This document shows positions 21,200 to 28,129 of a stretch of 30,129 bases of DNA, in pieces. Position numbers and translations under genes: made by a program. The notes below the pieces were generated by a model, which was given only the letters and a program-made list of their open reading frames with translations, had not been told where the DNA came from and searched no databases. Numbering within the stretch: position 1 is the stretch's first letter; every line of letters starts with the position of its first letter. Source of the stretch: a virus; IMG/VR virus record IMGVR_UViG_3300037488_001003, positions 1-30,129 of that record; one strand, written 5' to 3'.

Positions 21200-23786
21200 C
21201 TGAAGCTCCTTTTCTTGAAGATTTTTCCTGTGCTGCCTGCTGCGCCTGTGCGTCTTTTACTGCAAGTTCAGTGCGGAACTCACTAAGCATTTCCTTAATG
21301 GAGTCCTGAATACCTTTCTGCTGTAATGCCATTTCCTGACGAAGTTCGGCGACAGCCCGGTCTTTGTCAAATTGCAGTTTTTCACGATTAAGCGCGTTAT
21401 CGGCGATAAACTTATTCTGGTCAAGCTGATTTTTCTGCGCAGCTATGCCCTGCTTAACGCCAAGCTCCTGCTGCTTCATCTGTGCTTTCTGCGCGGCAAG
21501 CTGCGTTTGTGTCTGCGCGTTCAGCGCGGCTACTTCGAGCGACTTGTCAGGCTGCTCTGGCGCTTGACCCTGCTGCCCCCCGCCTTGCCCCTGCGTGGCC
21601 TGCTGCTGGGCCATTGCCTGCGCCTGCTGGGCGAGTATCTGCTGCATAACCTGCGCCGCCTGAACAGCGATCATCGCCTCAAGCTGGGGCGGAATACTCT
21701 GCGATGCGGGCTCGTTCTTCTCAGCGCCCCAATTTATCGGCGGCAGCGGAACCTGCATTTTCTGCTGCATCGTGACGTACATGTCCATCGCGATATGCTC
21801 AGCAATGTGCGCCTGAATTATTGGAATCATCTGTGGCATGACCATCTGAGCCTGAATAGCGCCCATGTGTACAGCAATATGCGCTTTATGGTTCTGGTCA
21901 AGATACGCGCGTATGGGCCTGCCAAGTGCAACAAGGCTTACCTCGCTAACCGGGTCCGCGCGCACTGCTTCCTGCGGTTTCGGGAACACCTTCTCAAGCT
22001 GGGGCGCGCGCATCGCTTTAAGCAGCGCCATTGCCGCCTCGCGCCTGTCTGCGATGTCAGGCATCTGAGTCGCAAGCTGAAACACCGCCTGCGCAAGTGC
22101 GATTCGCTGCGCATTTGATGTGATGTTCGGGTCAGAGACTGGCGCGATATCGACGCGGCCATCAAAGTCTTCTTTGAGTATCTCTTTCTCAACGCCGTTT
22201 ACATCGTAGGGGTATGACGATTCGTTGAGTTCTTCACCGCACAAGTCTGACAAATTCAGCAATTCGTCGCCGACAGCCTTATGCAACCGCTTATGTATGC
22301 CACTGAAGACTTTACTGCCCTGTTCCTGCAAGGCTACCGTTGTACCCACCGGGCCCGTTGTCGCCGCATCGCCTACCATGACTTCAGTAGTTGACGCGAA
22401 TCTGCGGCCTAGCTCTTGTAGCGCGCCAAGGAGGTTGAACAGCGTACTCGATGGTTCACGAAAATTCGGCGTGTAGAAGCTCTTCGCCAGTTCTTCCGCT
22501 GTAGAGTCAATCTCTTTATATACGCCCGGAGTGAGCTCGACATTTGAACCTGTTTTCGCATCCTTAGTGCGAAACCCGCCCTGAACGGCTGCAAACGCAC
22601 CCGCATCAAGGAGTATTTGAATAATTTTTGTAGCTGTCTCACCCAGCCCTCCGATTGTATGAAATAGCCCAAATCCATAGAACCCGAATCCGGGCAGGAA
22701 TTTCTTGTGTGTGAACCATACGCGCTTTTGGCGATATGTATCTTCTTCGCGCCAGTTGCGGCGAATCGCGAATACTTTTTTCGTAGCCCGGTCAATTGTT
22801 ATGATGTATGGGGCTTCTTCATCATCCTCGACGCCTTCGATGCGGTACTGAACGTGCACCTCAAACACGTCGCGCTTAACCTGTGCGCTGTTATCGTCGG
22901 TCGTTACCTCAATACCGTCAATCTCAGCGATTTTATCCTTTATCTCGCTTGTTTCAGTCGTATCTTCATCTTCATTCAGGTCACAGTCTCGGTATATTTT
23001 CGAGTCCTGGAGCCTCTTGATTTCACAAACGGGCTTGTGTAAAAGGTGAGTATAGCGGCCACACGTAGCAAGGCTCGTTTCACCGTAATTAACAATGAAG
23101 TCATCGAAGCGCACCCAGCGCGACACCACCTGCCCAGTGCTGTCGTCCTTATATTGTTTGTCGAACTCGCTGCCGGTGAATGGTAGCACAAAGAGTTTCT
23201 GTTCGCACTCGTCGTAGTAAGCGCGATCTTTGTACACCAGCAGATAGTTAAGATAGTCCTGAACACGGTCGGCTTGCGCGAGAAGCTCCGGCGTGGAAGC
23301 GCCAAGAATGCGTGTTTTTACAGGTCCATCAGGCGGAAAAAGTTCTGCCATAGCGCGCGCTTGAAACTGCGTAGCAGCCTCAATAAGCAGCGGATGATTG
23401 ACGCTGCCGAACACTTTTGACTTATGCGCGCCCGCGTCAAAATTGATGCCTAGCGCAGTAAGCCCCTCAACGAATTTCTGGTAGTGTGGCTCGCGCGTAA
23501 CATAGTCATCTTCAACGGCACTGGCGATATCTCTCCCCAGCGCGGACAAAACATCTTCAGGTAGCGTTAATGCCAAATTTGCACTAAAAGCGTCTTTTTC
23601 TTCTTTTTCTTCGCCGAGTTCCTCAACGACAATAAGCGAACCATCTGGTGCGAACGATATCGTGTCCGCATCAAAAGGGTCTCCGGGTAGCTCGACATCA
23701 AGCATTACATCCATACTGCCGGGTGTCTCGATACCCAACTCGCTTGGCGTGGCAGTAATACTTGGTATATTAGCGTATGGTTGCAT
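21192..23786 (-). CDS. Portal protein
   Basis: 864 residues. Seen: an acidic N-terminal 90 residues, ATQFQARAMAELFPPDGPVK at about 138-157, central portal segments (RYTHLLHKPVCEIKRLQD; FGLFHTIGGLGETATKIIQ at 372-390), LQEQGSKVFSGIHKRLHKAV near 487-506, and a very Gln/Ala-rich C-terminal coiled coil from about 690 on that looks like the barrel helix of P22-class portals. Length is normal for large podovirus portals. It forms the 12-fold ring where DNA enters and the tail attaches. It starts 13 bases after the large-terminase stop and overlaps the next gene by 8 bases. Confidence 0.88.
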   Translation of the reverse strand: MQPYANIPSITATPSELGIETPGSMDVMLDVELPGDPFDADTISFAPDGSLIVVEELGEEKEEKDAFSANLALTLPEDVLSALGRDIASAVEDDYVTREPHYQKFVEGLTALGINFDAGAHKSKVFGSVNHPLLIEAATQFQARAMAELFPPDGPVKTRILGASTPELLAQADRVQDYLNYLLVYKDRAYYDECEQKLFVLPFTGSEFDKQYKDDSTGQVVSRWVRFDDFIVNYGETSLATCGRYTHLLHKPVCEIKRLQDSKIYRDCDLNEDEDTTETSEIKDKIAEIDGIEVTTDDNSAQVKRDVFEVHVQYRIEGVEDDEEAPYIITIDRATKKVFAIRRNWREEDTYRQKRVWFTHKKFLPGFGFYGFGLFHTIGGLGETATKIIQILLDAGAFAAVQGGFRTKDAKTGSNVELTPGVYKEIDSTAEELAKSFYTPNFREPSSTLFNLLGALQELGRRFASTTEVMVGDAATTGPVGTTVALQEQGSKVFSGIHKRLHKAVGDELLNLSDLCGEELNESSYPYDVNGVEKEILKEDFDGRVDIAPVSDPNITSNAQRIALAQAVFQLATQMPDIADRREAAMALLKAMRAPQLEKVFPKPQEAVRADPVSEVSLVALGRPIRAYLDQNHKAHIAVHMGAIQAQMVMPQMIPIIQAHIAEHIAMDMYVTMQQKMQVPLPPINWGAEKNEPASQSIPPQLEAMIAVQAAQVMQQILAQQAQAMAQQQATQGQGGGQQGQAPEQPDKSLEVAALNAQTQTQLAAQKAQMKQQELGVKQGIAAQKNQLDQNKFIADNALNREKLQFDKDRAVAELRQEMALQQKGIQDSIKEMLSEFRTELAVKDAQAQQAAQEKSSRKGASDE

Positions 23787-23799
23787 CTATCTAAGTACC

Positions 23800-25050
23800 T
23801 CAGTCATCTGTGCCCGTTTTGAACTGCCGTTGGTATCGCCCTTGGGCTTCCCCGTCAAAATCTTCTTCATTATCGTCTTCTTCGGACAACTGTAAATAGA
23901 ATTTTCGCCGAAAATATAACCACGCTTGGCCGCAACTGTCAACACAATCATCGTGGGGGCCATTTGGAAACGCAGCACATTCGTCAATTATTTCCTGAGC
24001 CCAGTTCCGGGGCATATAGTAAACGAGCCCCTTCTCAAGCATCAGCGAGGCTACGTGCGCCTTTGTAAGCTTTGAGCCTTTCTCACTTATCGGGAGTATG
24101 GGCAACCGCGCGCGCTTAAGTTCCTGTATCAGCGAATGGCCGCTGGCTCGCTTCTCGATCAGTATTTTGTCGGGCTCGTAGTCCCGGTAAGACTGTACTG
24201 CATTCTCGCGCAGGTCTGGAAACGCAATGCGCTTGCGCAGCCGCTCCAAGAGTATGCAGGCAAACTTGTTGTCCTCCGGGCGTAGAAAGATGCCCCATGT
24301 CGTCCGCACGGTGTAGTCGTTTTTCTCAGCTTCCTCAAAAGCCGTGTCATAGCTCTGGAACTTGTAGTCACACTCCGGGGGAAACTCATTGTTCCATTTA
24401 CGCCAGTTCGCAGCGGGCATAATACCGCCGCCTTCTTCCGTGGGCTCCTGCATATACAGGGCGCTCCACACCTTCTTGGTCATGTTGTGCTTGGTACGCA
24501 GTAGCTCTTTCTTTGACCATCTGCGTGGGGAGAACGAATCTCCCTCTTTGTATGTCATCGGGTATGGGTGTTTACCTGTGTTGAGAAACTTCTCGTATTT
24601 TGGGTCTCTCGCTATTTTATTAAGCTTCTCTGCAACTTCAGCATTGATAAGCGCGGGAACCTTGATTACTTTCCATACATCCGCGCCAGTATCTACACTG
24701 TCCTCGGCAAGCTGTGACTCAAGCAAGCGCCCGGCCAAGTCCGCCACGTTCCACCGCGTCATCACCAACACGATCTTGTTACGCTCAGGCTGTCTCCGAG
24801 TGTAGAAACCTGCTGAGTACCAGTCTGCTACGCGGTCCATCACCAACCGACTGTACATATCCTGCTCAGATATTGGGTCGTCGATTAGTCCGCAGTTATG
24901 TGTTAAGTAGTCTTCGGCATAAAGGGTATGGTCTGGGGTTACTGAGAAGTTATAAAAAAGTTCTTCTGTTTCAGAAATGTCGATACTATAAATATCCTCA
25001 TACCCAAGGAAATTTCGTGTAAAAAACGCTTTTAGTCTTTGTAGGACCAT
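23800..25050 (-). CDS. terL: C-intein plus C-terminal part of large terminase subunit (TerL)
   Basis: 416 residues from the ATG at 25050; a GTG 15 bases earlier is possible. GGGGTACGC before this ATG is the same start context as the connector gene at 13625. Residues 1-52 are a C-intein: FYNFSVTPDHTLYAEDY, then LTHN followed by C53, the expected Asn/Cys splice junction. The C-extein begins CGLIDDPISEQ, in which LIDD is the Walker B strand. Further motifs: VMTRWNVADL (coupling motif), SYDTAFEEA, ILIEKRASG and PHDDCVDS, the three acidic elements of the RNase H-like packaging nuclease. It therefore carries Walker B and the nuclease but not Walker A, and needs joining to the N-terminal piece. Confidence 0.88.
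   Translation of the reverse strand: MVLQRLKAFFTRNFLGYEDIYSIDISETEELFYNFSVTPDHTLYAEDYLTHNCGLIDDPISEQDMYSRLVMDRVADWYSAGFYTRRQPERNKIVLVMTRWNVADLAGRLLESQLAEDSVDTGADVWKVIKVPALINAEVAEKLNKIARDPKYEKFLNTGKHPYPMTYKEGDSFSPRRWSKKELLRTKHNMTKKVWSALYMQEPTEEGGGIMPAANWRKWNNEFPPECDYKFQSYDTAFEEAEKNDYTVRTTWGIFLRPEDNKFACILLERLRKRIAFPDLRENAVQSYRDYEPDKILIEKRASGHSLIQELKRARLPILPISEKGSKLTKAHVASLMLEKGLVYYMPRNWAQEIIDECAAFPNGPHDDCVDSCGQAWLYFRRKFYLQLSEEDDNEEDFDGEAQGRYQRQFKTGTDD
24895..25050 (-). other. C-intein half (IntC, about 52 residues)
   Basis: Coding segment for the splicing C-half. It contains block F (IYSIDISETEELFYNFSV, with DHTLYAEDY) and block G (THN then Cys). The last Asn codon is 24897-24895 and the first extein Cys codon 24894-24892. 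It opens with an amphipathic, basic stretch (LQRLKAFFTRNF) and continues as an acidic segment that could pair with the basic tail of the N-half. Confidence 0.85.
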
Positions 25051-25853
25051 GCGTACCCCCCGCACGTTTTATTTGTACCAGAAAGGCATTTCATAAGCGC
25101 GGGGTAGTTCAACCCCGTTTGTTGGCATGCAGTTGTGGCATTCGCGTATTCAGCTATTTTTCTACCCTCGAATAGCTGAATAACTTCACAATTACGCTTT
25201 GCAGTTGGTGTTTCAAAAGCAGCTTCAACCGCCCAGCCGCGCCGAAAACGACTATTCACAACTCCCCTATCTAGGCCAAGCACTGAGCACCAATTAGCAA
25301 AAGTTCGCTGCTCCCCCCTGTACAGTATGAATACGTTCGCGCTAGTATTGTTCGCTTGCTCTACCTGAGTAGCCCAGCGGCAGTTTTCTTTACAGTACCC
25401 TTTATTATTGTCAACTCTATCAAGCGAATGCATATCTGTTGGGGGCTCCCCCATATCCTCAATGAAGTTGTAAAAATCATTCCACCGCTCGCAGCAGGTA
25501 ATACCCCGTTCGGCGTAGTGCGCTGCTGTAGGCCCGTGGCCGTTACCCATAGCGCCGCTGCGGTAGCGCATGTTTTTCCATATCTGGTAAACGCGCGTTT
25601 GTGTTTTATTGTGTCGGGCTACCCATGAAGTTGTTTCGGGGCAGAAGTTTGCTTTTCGGCTATTTCTACGCAGCATGTGGTCGTCGCTTGGGCGTGGGCC
25701 TACATCTTCTAAAAACGCCTCAAATACATGCCAGCGCTCACATACAGTAATGCCCTGCAAGTAGTCTTTAGCGCTCGCGTTGTAGCAGCGGTTCATCATC
25801 GCATCCCAAGTTTTCTTTTCAGGCGCTTCACTAGCGAATCTGCGCGTAGCCAT
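25032..25853 (-). CDS. HNH-family modular homing endonuclease inside the split terminase
   Basis: 273 residues in a frame different from both intein ORFs. Residues about 90-170 carry the family core: GITCCERWNDFYNFIEDMG, LDRVDNNKGYCKENCRWAT and EQANN. Residues about 15-85 are a diverged copy (GITVCERWHVFEAFLEDVG) whose LDRVDN block is replaced by MLRRNSRKAN, so it is probably inactive. Then a helix-turn-helix-like module (FANWCSVLGLDRGVVNSRF...GWAVEAAFETP) and a NUMOD1-like module (IAEYANATTACQQTGLNYPAL...GGYAWSYKD). It would cut intein-less terminase genes so that repair copies the element. It overlaps the N-piece by 58 bases and the C-piece by 19. No strong ribosome-binding site is visible; an in-frame TAG lies 6 bases upstream of its start. 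Confidence 0.87.
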   Translation of the reverse strand: MATRRFASEAPEKKTWDAMMNRCYNASAKDYLQGITVCERWHVFEAFLEDVGPRPSDDHMLRRNSRKANFCPETTSWVARHNKTQTRVYQIWKNMRYRSGAMGNGHGPTAAHYAERGITCCERWNDFYNFIEDMGEPPTDMHSLDRVDNNKGYCKENCRWATQVEQANNTSANVFILYRGEQRTFANWCSVLGLDRGVVNSRFRRGWAVEAAFETPTAKRNCEVIQLFEGRKIAEYANATTACQQTGLNYPALMKCLSGTNKTCGGYAWSYKD

Positions 25854-26677
25854 AGTTTTCTACATACGGTAAGTGTCGATAGGCGCATCCCGACCTTCAA
25901 ATCAGAGGCTTTAACCCACGCCCCAGCTACCCAAAACGGGTGTTCAGATGAAGTGCATAGACGCCCATTCACTTTATATGCTCGCGGATGATTTGTCAAG
26001 AAAACAAAATCAACCTTTTGCCAGCCGCTAGAAGATAAAACCGTGTCCCCCCAGCGAATATCCTGCACGGCGCGTGGGCCATCAGGGGTATAAACGCGAG
26101 TTCCGTCTAAGAAACAATTAAAGCCCTTACCGGCAATACCCGCTCCCACACCTGCGGCGTTGTACACCCCCCCTTTGGACGTTGCCCACTGCCCTGCTGC
26201 TTTCGAGTCTTTCGCAATCTGCGTTTCTGGGAATATCTCTTGGTACGCATCTGTCATTATTAGATTGCGTATCTGCCGACCGAACTTTTCTACCAGTGTG
26301 CCCGCGTAAGATGTATGCAGCACTTGGTCAGTCGGATACAACCCTTCCCACCATGATGGAAGTAACTTGCTTGACAACTCCGATTTACCCGCCCGTGGAG
26401 GTAAAAACAGCATTAAGCGGTCAGTTTCACCAAAGGCCAAGTCATCGAACGCTTCGGCGATTAAGATATGTATTTCTTCGATAACAAACCAAGGCGCTAC
26501 GTGCGCAGTGTAATGTAGAAAGTCGCGTGATTTCGCACGCATATTCTTTCTACGCATATATTCATGCAGAATAGCGTCATCAACTGCATCCTGAGAAAGC
26601 AGTTCTGTATAAATTGCGTCTTCGGTGGCTTCGTGTGTTAGCTGGGGGCTACGAAGTTGGGTGCTAGGACCGCTCAA
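25796..26677 (-). CDS. terL: N-terminal part of large terminase subunit (TerL) plus N-intein
   Basis: 293 residues. The start is a TTG at 26677: the codon before it is TAA, the next Met is residue 41, and GGAGGG lies at good distance. Residues 1-187 are the N-extein with the Walker A motif LPPRAGKSE (K98) and the adenine-side segment WEGLYPTDQVLHTSYAG; it ends GVGAGIAGKGFN. Residue C188 starts the intein (CFLDGTRVYTPDG, block A; SSEHPFWVAGAWVKASDLKVG, block B). The ORF ends 106 residues into the intein with a very basic tail (VKRLKRKLGMR). Alone it has ATP-binding but no Walker B or nuclease, so it should be non-functional until trans-splicing. Confidence 0.88.
   Translation of the reverse strand: MSGPSTQLRSPQLTHEATEDAIYTELLSQDAVDDAILHEYMRRKNMRAKSRDFLHYTAHVAPWFVIEEIHILIAEAFDDLAFGETDRLMLFLPPRAGKSELSSKLLPSWWEGLYPTDQVLHTSYAGTLVEKFGRQIRNLIMTDAYQEIFPETQIAKDSKAAGQWATSKGGVYNAAGVGAGIAGKGFNCFLDGTRVYTPDGPRAVQDIRWGDTVLSSSGWQKVDFVFLTNHPRAYKVNGRLCTSSEHPFWVAGAWVKASDLKVGMRLSTLTVCRKLWLRADSLVKRLKRKLGMR
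25799..26116 (-). other. N-intein half (IntN, 106 residues)
   Basis: Begins at the Cys codon 26116-26114, directly after the Asn of GKGFN. Block A with the nucleophile Cys, a GDTVLSSSGWQKV strand, and block B with a Ser in place of the usual Thr of TxxH (S243, H246). Length 106 matches naturally split N-inteins. The last 23 residues hold many Lys/Arg and one acidic residue. Confidence 0.85.
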
Positions 26678-27170
26678 TTACTTCGCCCTCCAAAGTGCTA
26701 CGCAGCACCTCGCCGCTCGTAGCCACACCTTTCTTCGACACAATCTGCATAACCCGTAGCTCCAATTCGCCATCATCCATCTTTTGAAGCATTCGCGACA
26801 TGGCATCACGGGTAATCTTCTCGCTGCCGCCTGCCGGACCCTGCGCCGGCTCCAGTTCACCCATCTTGGCTATCCACTTGATCAGATCAGCGCGTACCGG
26901 CGCGGGCGTTTTGGTGTCCTGAACCAATCCATAGGCCACACCGAGGAGGTCTTCGGCCTGCATACGGGCTTTGGCGCGGAAGGAGAGGCCATTCTCACGG
27001 ATATGCTTCTGGAACTCTGCGACGGTGCGTGAAAACAGGGGATGCGCGGACCACTGCGCGAACACGGCTGGATCGATAGCATACCGGGTGAGGATGTCTT
27101 CAAGGCTGTCGATACCAAGGGCTACGTCGAAGCATAGGCGGGTGTCCCAAGGGACCAGATCGCTGCTCAT
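26664..27170 (-). CDS. Small terminase subunit (TerS) candidate
   Basis: 168 residues, ATGA overlap with the ribbon-helix-helix gene and 14-base overlap with the TTG start of the large terminase. Seen: a short helix-turn-helix-like start (SLEDILTRYAIDPAVFAQWSAHP), a long central helix (FQKHIRENGLSFRAKARMQAEDLLGVAYGLV), and a helical KWIAKMGELEPA region followed by a charged tail. This is the usual arrangement of a small terminase that recognises DNA through its N-terminus and forms a ring with the middle helices. The assignment rests on position plus domain pattern. Confidence 0.75.
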   Translation of the reverse strand: MSSDLVPWDTRLCFDVALGIDSLEDILTRYAIDPAVFAQWSAHPLFSRTVAEFQKHIRENGLSFRAKARMQAEDLLGVAYGLVQDTKTPAPVRADLIKWIAKMGELEPAQGPAGGSEKITRDAMSRMLQKMDDGELELRVMQIVSKKGVATSGEVLRSTLEGEVIERS

Positions 27171-27397
27171 TTTGTACCCGGAGTGCTACAGATGCGCGTC
27201 AACTGCTCGGCCAGCGGGGGGACAAAGTTGTTTGCTGCTGCACGACCACTGGAGGCGGCATTCTCGGCGCTATTCAGGATGATGCGGAGGGCGAGGGACC
27301 GGGAGTAGCCGTTCTTCGCGGCAAAACGGTCGAGAAAGGCGAGGTTGCGCGCCTGAAGTGTGACGCTTATCCGCTCGATATCTTCGGGTGAGGCCAT
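27167..27397 (-). CDS. Ribbon-helix-helix (CopG/Arc-like) DNA-binding protein
   Basis: 76 residues with AAGGAG upstream of the ATG. Residues about 8-45 (RISVTLQARNLAFLDRFAAK, SRSLALRIILN) match a beta-strand plus two-helix RHH fold, whose paired strands insert into the DNA major groove. It is first in the packaging operon and faces the regulatory hub, so it may bind there and control its own and the late genes. Two TAATAC sequences exactly 10 bases apart lie 18-33 bases upstream of its start and could be its operator. Confidence 0.75.
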   Translation of the reverse strand: MASPEDIERISVTLQARNLAFLDRFAAKNGYSRSLALRIILNSAENAASSGRAAANNFVPPLAEQLTRICSTPGTK

Positions 27398-27414
27398 AGG
27401 GGCTCCTTAACTGT

Positions 27415-27430
27415 TAATACAGCGTAATAC
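27415..27430 (-). promoter_or_regulatory. Possible RHH operator: two TAATAC boxes 10 bp apart
   Basis: Identical hexamers at 27415-27420 and 27425-27430, one helical turn apart, just upstream of the ribbon-helix-helix gene. RHH proteins often bind such phased short repeats. Short length means chance is possible. Confidence 0.3.
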
Positions 27431-27474
27431 TACGTTTTGAAAAAAGCAAGCCCCCTGCGCCCGCGATATAATAA

Positions 27475-27645
27475 GCGGTACAAACGTATAAAAGTATATC
27501 TGCCGCACTGTTGAGTGCTACATATATAACTGCCGCACTTTAAGCGTATAAAAATATTAAGCGGCACAACCGCCGCACTGTTGGGCGTTTAAGTGTATTA
27601 AAAGATACACCCCTTGAACCGCTGCACTTTAAGCGTATAAAAGTA
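27475..27645. repeat. Helically phased repeat array in the divergent regulatory hub
   Basis: Two interleaved repeat families. CGTATAAAA or TGTATTAAAA occurs with its first base at 27485, 27545, 27594 and 27634 (steps 60, 49, 40). GCCGCACT or GCTGCACT occurs at 27502, 27532, 27572 and 27621 (steps 30, 40, 49). All steps are near whole helical turns, so bound proteins would sit on one face. Two units share GCACTTTAAGCGTATAAAA exactly. The array lies between minus-strand late genes and plus-strand small genes. Candidates: operators, a phage origin, or phage-specific promoters. Confidence 0.75.
27614..27641 (+). promoter_or_regulatory. Sigma70-like promoter within the repeat array
   Basis: TTGAAC and TATAAA are separated by 16 bases on the plus strand; the -10 is the last repeat of the array. 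It would transcribe through the G-rich tract toward the first small plus-strand gene. Only this copy of the repeat has a good -35. Confidence 0.45.
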
Positions 27646-27733
27646 GTATTTAGTAATACTTGTAATTTCCGAATTTTTGTGCGATTTTGAGATTGCACTA
27701 ATATAGAGAAGGGGCGGCACATGCGTTTGCCCT

Positions 27734-27774
27734 CCCCCGGTGGGGGTAGGGGGGTGGGGGTAGGGGGGTGGGGG
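27734..27774 (+). other. G-rich tract with five G-runs (quadruplex-prone)
   Basis: On the plus strand, runs of 5, 6, 5, 6 and 5 G occur at 27742-46, 49-54, 56-60, 63-68 and 70-74 with loops of 1-2 bases, among the strongest four-strand-forming patterns possible. CCCCC at 27734-27738 can pair with the first G-run to give a competing hairpin. It ends 22 bases before the -35 of the promoter at 27797. Confidence 0.85.
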
Positions 27775-27796
27775 TTAAATATAGTTACTTAGATAC

Positions 27797-27824
27797 TTGA
27801 CAAACAAAATTACTAGCGTACAAT
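27797..27824 (+). promoter_or_regulatory. Sigma70 promoter P1 for the small plus-strand genes
   Basis: TTGACA, 16-base spacer, TACAAT. Identical boxes and spacer length recur at 28563-28590, and both are followed by GGGAACCATC. Host RNA polymerase should use it early in infection. Confidence 0.85.
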
Positions 27825-27910
27825 GGGAACCATCGTAGTTCAGCAGAGAACAACGATGCGGCGCTGGCCCGCGCATAATGTAAAGCCCGCACGTTATAGG
27901 AGTATATGAC
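27825..27910 (+). promoter_or_regulatory. Structured leader L1 (paralogous with L2)
   Basis: 86 bases from the -10 box to ATG. Bases 27831-27858 form a 28-nt hairpin: CATCGT/ACGATG, an A-A mismatch, GTT/AAC and an 8-base loop. Then comes CGGCGCTGGCCCGC, shared with L2, a possible weak stem ATAATG/CGTTAT at 27875-27896, and the ribosome-binding site TAGGAG at 27897-27902. Confidence 0.65.
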
Positions 27911-28129
27911 ATGCCGTTGAACACTGCGCAGATGATTGTTGCTTGTGTGTCGTACAAGATCAAGGCTGAACTTAGCCGCGAGATAGCACCCGCATTAAGG
28001 CATGATGTGTGGGGGTTGATAGATGAAATGGCTATGCGCATGAAGCGTTGCGGGCGCTGGAATACCGCGCGGTATATGCAGAAACGCGGATTCCCAATCG
28101 AACTCGCTCTTGCAGCGATCTACTACTAA
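27911..28129 (+). CDS. Small protein of unknown function (72 aa), plus-strand cassette
   Basis: Starts at the first ATG after promoter P1, with TAGGAG 8 bases upstream. Helical, with a basic middle (MAMRMKRCGRWNTARYMQKRG) and hydrophobic ends. No cofactor motif. It is followed by a GC-rich hairpin and the next gene. Likely an early, host-directed small protein; I do not recognise a family. Confidence 0.72.
   Translation: MPLNTAQMIVACVSYKIKAELSREIAPALRHDVWGLIDEMAMRMKRCGRWNTARYMQKRGFPIELALAAIYY

What the first reader, a model, noticed from the sequence alone, without database searches (positions are those of the whole stretch)
23800..26677. Large terminase gene fractured by a split intein with an HNH homing endonuclease between the halves
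Three overlapping ORFs lie in three frames: TerL N-part plus IntN (Walker A; Cys after GKGFN), a complete HNH endonuclease, and IntC plus TerL C-part (THN then Cys; Walker B and nuclease). The extein halves add up to 551 residues, normal for TerL. This is the 'fractured gene' arrangement known from metagenomic split inteins, here in an essential phage motor gene and with an HNH-type enzyme rather than the Vsr-like one I associate with that layout. Packaging would depend on trans-splicing. Whether this TerL case is already described cannot be settled here.
Basis: partly seen in the sequence, partly recalled or inferred. Interest (0 to 1): 0.92.

Follow-up and report, generated by a model that had tools for sequence, protein, structure and literature searches.

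The report
Phage packaging gene split by intein
In this phage the gene for the DNA-packaging motor is cut in two by a selfish element: the two protein pieces carry halves of a split intein that should weld them back together, and a DNA-cutting enzyme gene that probably spreads the element sits between them; this layout is known from other phages, but here it has a different cutting enzyme and a different insertion point.

Summary
Three overlapping minus-strand ORFs in three frames encode TerL-N+IntN (26677-25796), an HNH endonuclease (25853-25032) and IntC+TerL-C (25050 or 25065-23800). A close relative, L002, has an uninterrupted 529-aa TerL whose ...GKGFN^LGLIDDP... is the exact empty site; only the +1 residue differs (Leu there, Cys here). 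IntN is supported by profiles (Pfam Hint; solved gp41-1 intein, E about 4e-6; leave-one-out HMM 1e-8). IntC rests mainly on position and end motif (TIGR01443, below cut-off). In the HNH stretch the IntN frame has 11 stops and the IntC frame 29, no fewer than chance gives, so no continuous intein frame is being kept. Best reading: a fractured gene (Dassa type), TerL rebuilt by protein trans-splicing, with a homing nuclease in the middle. Splicing and homing are inferred. Split TerL inteins (AceL, GOS), Walker-B TerL inteins and fractured genes with Vsr-like or GIY-YIG nucleases are already known. New is the combination: canonical split, Walker-B site, genuine NUMOD-type HNH. Relatives show a series: cis inteins at the same TerL site carry HNH genes hidden in another frame (Clown) or on the other strand (BUCT618), possible intermediates towards fracture.

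The parts
26117..26677 (-). TerL N-extein (187 aa, Walker A PPRAGKS), TTG start with SD GGAGG
25799..26116 (-). IntN, 106 aa (about 84 aa Hint core from Cys1, then 22 aa strongly basic tail that runs into the HNH start); stop 25796-25798
25796..25853 (-). overlap of the IntN end with the HNH start (58 nt, two frames)
25032..25853 (-). HNH endonuclease, 273 aa: degenerate first copy (about 14-88), complete HNH copy (about 89-175), I-HmuI NUMOD-like C-terminal domain (234-268)
25032..25050 (-). overlap of the HNH end with the ATG start of IntC (19 nt; 34 nt if the GTG at 25065 is used); possible translational coupling
24895..25050 (-). IntC, 52 aa (57 from the GTG), ends ...DHTLYAEDYLTHN
23800..24894 (-). 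TerL C-extein (364 aa), Cys+1 then GLIDDP (Walker B), RNase H-like nuclease
26664..27170 (-). upstream ORF, TerS-like by position and by similarity to the TerS-position gene in L002
21192..23786 (-). downstream portal protein gene (phrog_1216)

Best explanation
This is a fractured gene. A class 1 (Cys1, penultimate His, Asn, Cys+1) canonically split intein sits at the Walker B motif of a phage large terminase, and a free-standing HNH homing endonuclease gene lies between the two halves. The two polypeptides (TerL-N-IntN and IntC-TerL-C) would associate through IntN and IntC and trans-splice to give a TerL of about 551 residues. The nuclease would cut intein-less terL alleles such as that of L002 at GKGFN^LGLIDDP, and repair from the donor would copy the whole cassette. 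The layout and the empty site are shown by sequence. Association, splicing, cutting and homing are inferred.
For: Empty-site relative L002, clean to the codon: AAT|TGC versus AAT|CTG. IntN: PDB gp41-1 E 4e-6, Pfam PT-HINT 4e-7 and Hint_2 9e-7, leave-one-out HMM 1.2e-8 as best of 555 window frames. IntC: the two best NCBIfam models are both intein models, TIGR01443 over positions 2-24 of 24 but below cut-off; HN^C lies exactly at the extein boundary. IntN net charge +11 and IntC -6, as would suit association. All invariant residues of the HNH alignment are kept, in the second copy or the domain after it; it carries a NUMOD-like DNA-binding domain. The intein-frame stops are unconstrained: 11 seen versus 11.9 expected, 29 versus 20.3. 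Cis inteins occupy the same site in Gordonia phage Clown and E. coli phage BUCT618. The same three-gene layout occurs in cultured Pseudomonas phages MIJ3 and Paride, in polB.
Against: IntC alone is not significant by profile (TIGR01443 12.7 bits, cut-off 15.6; leave-one-out C HMM no hit). Single metagenome-derived viral record; no second copy of this fractured terL found. The HNH start has no clear Shine-Dalgarno site. No splicing data. The HNH first copy is degenerate, and a structure search gave no significant match (best was PacI HNH, E 0.26).
Confidence: 0.85

Rival explanations
1. Assembly or sequencing error: really one continuous cis intein with an in-frame HNH domain, broken by two false indels.
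For: Both frame changes fall in short overlaps (58 and 19-34 nt) and a G6 run lies at the second. No reads were available.
Against: Two independent indels are needed, each in a short overlap. The G6 run codes the conserved GGY of the HNH C-terminal GGYAWSYKD-stop, so a changed run would spoil a conserved end. An ATG with a G-rich upstream stretch begins IntC. The IntN and IntC frames hold 11 and 29 stops across the HNH stretch. The same layout exists in cultured phages.
Confidence: 0.08
2. Decaying element: the intein was split by mutation and no longer splices; the record is a dead or dying lineage.
For: IntC is divergent and low in GC (35% versus about 50%); the first HNH copy is degenerate.
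Against: All catalytic splice residues are kept; both exteins are intact with mostly synonymous differences from L002; the HNH keeps all invariant residues. TerL is essential for tailed phages, so loss of splicing would be lethal.
Confidence: 0.05
3. Two-piece terminase that works without splicing, the halves assembling non-covalently with the intein halves as docking domains; or an RNA intron.
For: A free-standing nuclease insertion that leaves two working peptides is known for a phage ribonucleotide reductase (cited in PMC10448857).
Against: Intein catalytic residues and Cys+1 are present where the intein-less relative has Leu. Rfam finds no group I or II intron in 22500-28000.
Confidence: 0.02

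Closest known systems
Fractured genes (Dassa et al. 2009, NAR gkp095; paper not held, known from citations and memory)
   Same: Conserved enzyme gene split by a split intein with a free-standing endonuclease gene between the halves.
AceL-TerL and GOS-TerL split inteins (PMC11766414)
   Same: Naturally split class 1 inteins in phage-type TerL.
   Different: Those are atypically split (IntN 25 and 37 aa, IntC 104 and 115); here 106/52, split at the usual endonuclease position. Insertion sites were not compared.
AceL NrdHF split class 3 intein (PMC7891396)
   Same: Fractured-gene layout in a likely phage contig; sizes 98/48.
   Different: GIY-YIG nuclease, class 3 mechanism, different host gene.
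MIJ3/Paride PolB split intein (PMC6892783; LR588166, OR805295)
   Same: Three-gene layout, overlapping or abutting ORFs, cultured phages; published as HNH.
   Different: Different host gene; its nuclease shows a Vsr-type pattern, not HNH, and is unrelated to this one.
Mycobacteriophage TerL1-e and other TerL inteins (PMC5050341); Clown and BUCT618 TerL
   Same: Inteins at Walker B of TerL.
   Different: Those are cis inteins.
Hidden HNH in a phage methylase insertion, ShiLan domain (PMC11855218)
   Same: HNH gene overlapping its host gene in another frame.
   Different: No intein there, and the host gene stays unbroken.

Membership tests
Fractured gene (Dassa type) | conserved enzyme gene in two ORFs whose products join to one enzyme | tested here: met
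   Profiles continue across the gap; unbroken relative L002
Fractured gene (Dassa type) | each half carries an intein half at the break | tested here: met
   IntN significant; IntC by position and motif only, profile below cut-off
Fractured gene (Dassa type) | free-standing endonuclease gene between the halves | tested here: met
   HNH ORF with own start and conserved end
Vsr-like (EDxHD) homing endonuclease family of the original fractured genes | Vsr-like nuclease fold | tested here: not met
   phrog_3377 HNH E 5e-60, no Vsr-like match. The nuclease is not of that family; the layout is shared, and fractured genes with another nuclease (GIY-YIG) are published (PMC7891396)
Class 1 split intein | Cys or Ser 1, block B His, penultimate His, terminal Asn, Cys, Ser or Thr +1 | tested here: met
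   C1, SSEH, HN, C+1 read from sequence
Class 1 split intein | the halves splice in trans | not testable with these tools
   needs co-expression
HNH homing endonuclease | HNH motif with DNA-binding (NUMOD-type) domain | tested here: met
   structure search inconclusive
HNH homing endonuclease | cuts the intein-less allele | not testable with these tools
   a candidate target exists in L002
Phage large terminase (TerL) | Walker A, Walker B and RNase H-like nuclease | tested here: met

The most novel reading that the evidence does not exclude
Fractured genes and split inteins arise when a free-standing HNH gene enters the linker of an intein. At first the HNH gene sits hidden in another frame or on the other strand while the intein frame stays open; then the intein frame breaks and splicing goes on in trans. 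The TerL Walker-B site would show the stages side by side: cis intein with an HNH in another frame (Clown), cis intein with an antisense HNH (BUCT618), and fully fractured (this window). In two helicase inteins with the same HNH family in another frame (L069, L065) the intein frame has 0 stops where about 12 are expected (P < 0.0002), so the hidden state is a maintained one.
Probability: 0.35. Interest if true: 0.7.

Novelty: new variant of a known kind. Interest (0 to 1): 0.5.

Why it matters
It adds a canonically split class 1 intein in a new position of an essential phage motor, a candidate trans-splicing tool with a natural empty-site partner for homing tests. The nested-nuclease series found around it offers a concrete, testable route from cis intein to split intein, a question that fractured genes have left open.

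Tried and rejected
Scans for a second copy of the fractured terL: P0003 in viral contigs gave only L002; IntN alone gave none; nucleotide search of phages gave none; TerL alignments A1 and A2 in viral contigs and A2 in genomes gave many TerL relatives. Of 208 TerL loci with both parts (window included) 6 have a large insert: the window, Clown and BUCT618 at Walker B; L224, L235, L293 at another site (VM^C...HN^TRW); none but the window is fractured. The sample is by similarity rank, not random. 80 loci with relatives of the HNH: none has it between split intein halves; two have it in another frame inside helicase inteins. Group I/II intron: no Rfam match. Structure of the HNH: core well predicted, first copy poorly, no significant PDB match. 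The synonymous-shuffle test is uninformative for BUCT618 (antisense register) and weak for L235 and L293. Metagenome collection not available.

Full report
Observation. The window is a 30,129-base virus record. On the minus strand, between a TerS-position gene and a portal gene, lie three overlapping ORFs in three frames: 26677-25796, 25853-25032 and 25065/25050-23800. The first holds TerL up to GKGFN, then Cys and an intein N-half; the third begins with an intein C-half ending THN, then Cys-GLIDDP and the rest of TerL. PHROG terminase models run on from one piece to the other, and the second piece carries the RNase H-like nuclease.

Empty site. The closest relative, L002, has one 529-aa TerL with the same neighbours. 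The protein is unbroken at GKGFN-LGLIDDP, and the DNA at the junction is AAT|TGC in the window against AAT|CTG in L002. So the insert is clean and the only extein change at the seam is Leu to Cys, the +1 nucleophile. Exteins are about 70% identical at protein level; of 210 codons with one difference, 172 are synonymous, so both genes are under purifying selection.

Intein. IntN is well supported: Pfam Hint families, the solved gp41-1 intein, and an HMM built from other inteins without the window, which picks this frame out of 555 at 1.2e-8. That HMM includes known intein sequences written from memory. IntC is weaker: the intein C-terminal model TIGR01443 matches over its length but under its cut-off, and my leave-one-out C model finds nothing. 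Its identification rests on the HN-Cys motif at the exact extein boundary and on the partner. The split (about 84-106 / 52 aa) is at the usual endonuclease position, unlike AceL-TerL and GOS-TerL (PMC11766414). Net charges are +11 (IntN) and -6 (IntC).

Nuclease. The middle ORF belongs to a widespread phage HNH family (phrog_3377, E 5e-60) with an I-HmuI NUMOD-like end. It has a degenerate first copy of the core (36% identical to the second); all residues invariant among 42 relatives are kept. AlphaFold gives a confident core, but there is no significant PDB match.

Is it truly fractured? Shuffling synonymous codons of the nuclease shows how many stops the intein frames would hold by chance. 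The window has 11 (11.9 expected) in the IntN frame and 29 (20.3 expected) in the IntC frame: nothing keeps those frames open. By contrast, cis inteins L069 and L065, with the same HNH family in another frame, have 0 stops where about 12 are expected. The HNH ends with a conserved GGYAWSYK and its own stop, overlapping an ATG for IntC; this argues against a frameshift error at the G6 run. Reads could not be seen, and an indel in the first overlap alone cannot be excluded from sequence.

Precedents. Dassa et al. 2009 defined fractured genes (not held). AceL NrdHF has the layout with GIY-YIG (PMC7891396). Cultured jumbo phages MIJ3 and Paride have it in polB; the MIJ3 paper calls the nuclease HNH (PMC6892783), but its sequence shows a Vsr-type pattern (my reading of the motif, not a profile match). 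TerL inteins at Walker A and B are common in mycobacteriophages (PMC5050341). So kind and host gene are known; the combination with a genuine HNH at Walker B in split form was not found in what I could read.

Surroundings. At the same Walker-B site Gordonia phage Clown has a cis intein whose DNA also encodes an HNH protein in another frame (L004 2400-3527), and E. coli phage BUCT618 has a cis intein with a NUMOD4-HNH gene on the opposite strand (L007 3598-4269). At a second TerL site L224, L235 and L293 carry endonuclease VII-type genes out of frame. In Clown and L224 the open intein frame is mildly unlikely by chance (P about 0.02 and 0.01); in L235 and L293 it is not. Hidden out-of-frame HNH genes in phage insertions were described in 2025 outside inteins (PMC11855218). 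This suggests a path from hidden nested nuclease to fractured gene, which is an inference.

Verdict. Real, well explained, a new variant of a known kind. Trans-splicing and homing remain to be shown.

Noticed in passing
L004 2400-3527 (Gordonia phage Clown TerL); L007 3598-4269 minus (E. coli phage BUCT618 TerL): Cis inteins at the same TerL Walker-B site contain an HNH gene in another frame (Clown) or on the opposite strand (BUCT618, NUMOD4 plus HNH_3).
   Followed up: partly
L069 3773-4426 and L065 1849-2493: SNF2-like helicase inteins whose frame stays open through an out-of-frame HNH gene of the same family as the window's: 0 stops, about 12 expected, P < 0.0002.
   Followed up: partly
L224 2005-2343, L235 4211-4765, L293 2861-3445: TerL cis inteins at VM^C...HN^TRW with endonuclease VII-type genes in another frame.
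   Followed up: partly
L248 730-2001 plus, 1642-2388 minus, 2326-2715 plus: Another fractured gene: Mu F-like head protein with IntN, an antisense DUF559 nuclease overlapping it, and IntC with the rest.
   Followed up: partly
L250 3847-5529 (phage MIJ3 ORF 154): Nuclease published as HNH looks Vsr-like by sequence (E...ELDIYVPSKNLAIEYNGLYWHS); the annotation may be wrong.
   Followed up: partly
L118 3369-5966 and L276 1827-4532: TerL genes with apparent cis inteins at or near Walker A.
   Followed up: no
window 25032-25853: The HNH protein is a tandem duplication; its first copy has lost the HNH asparagine (ENCRW to ETTSW).
   Followed up: partly
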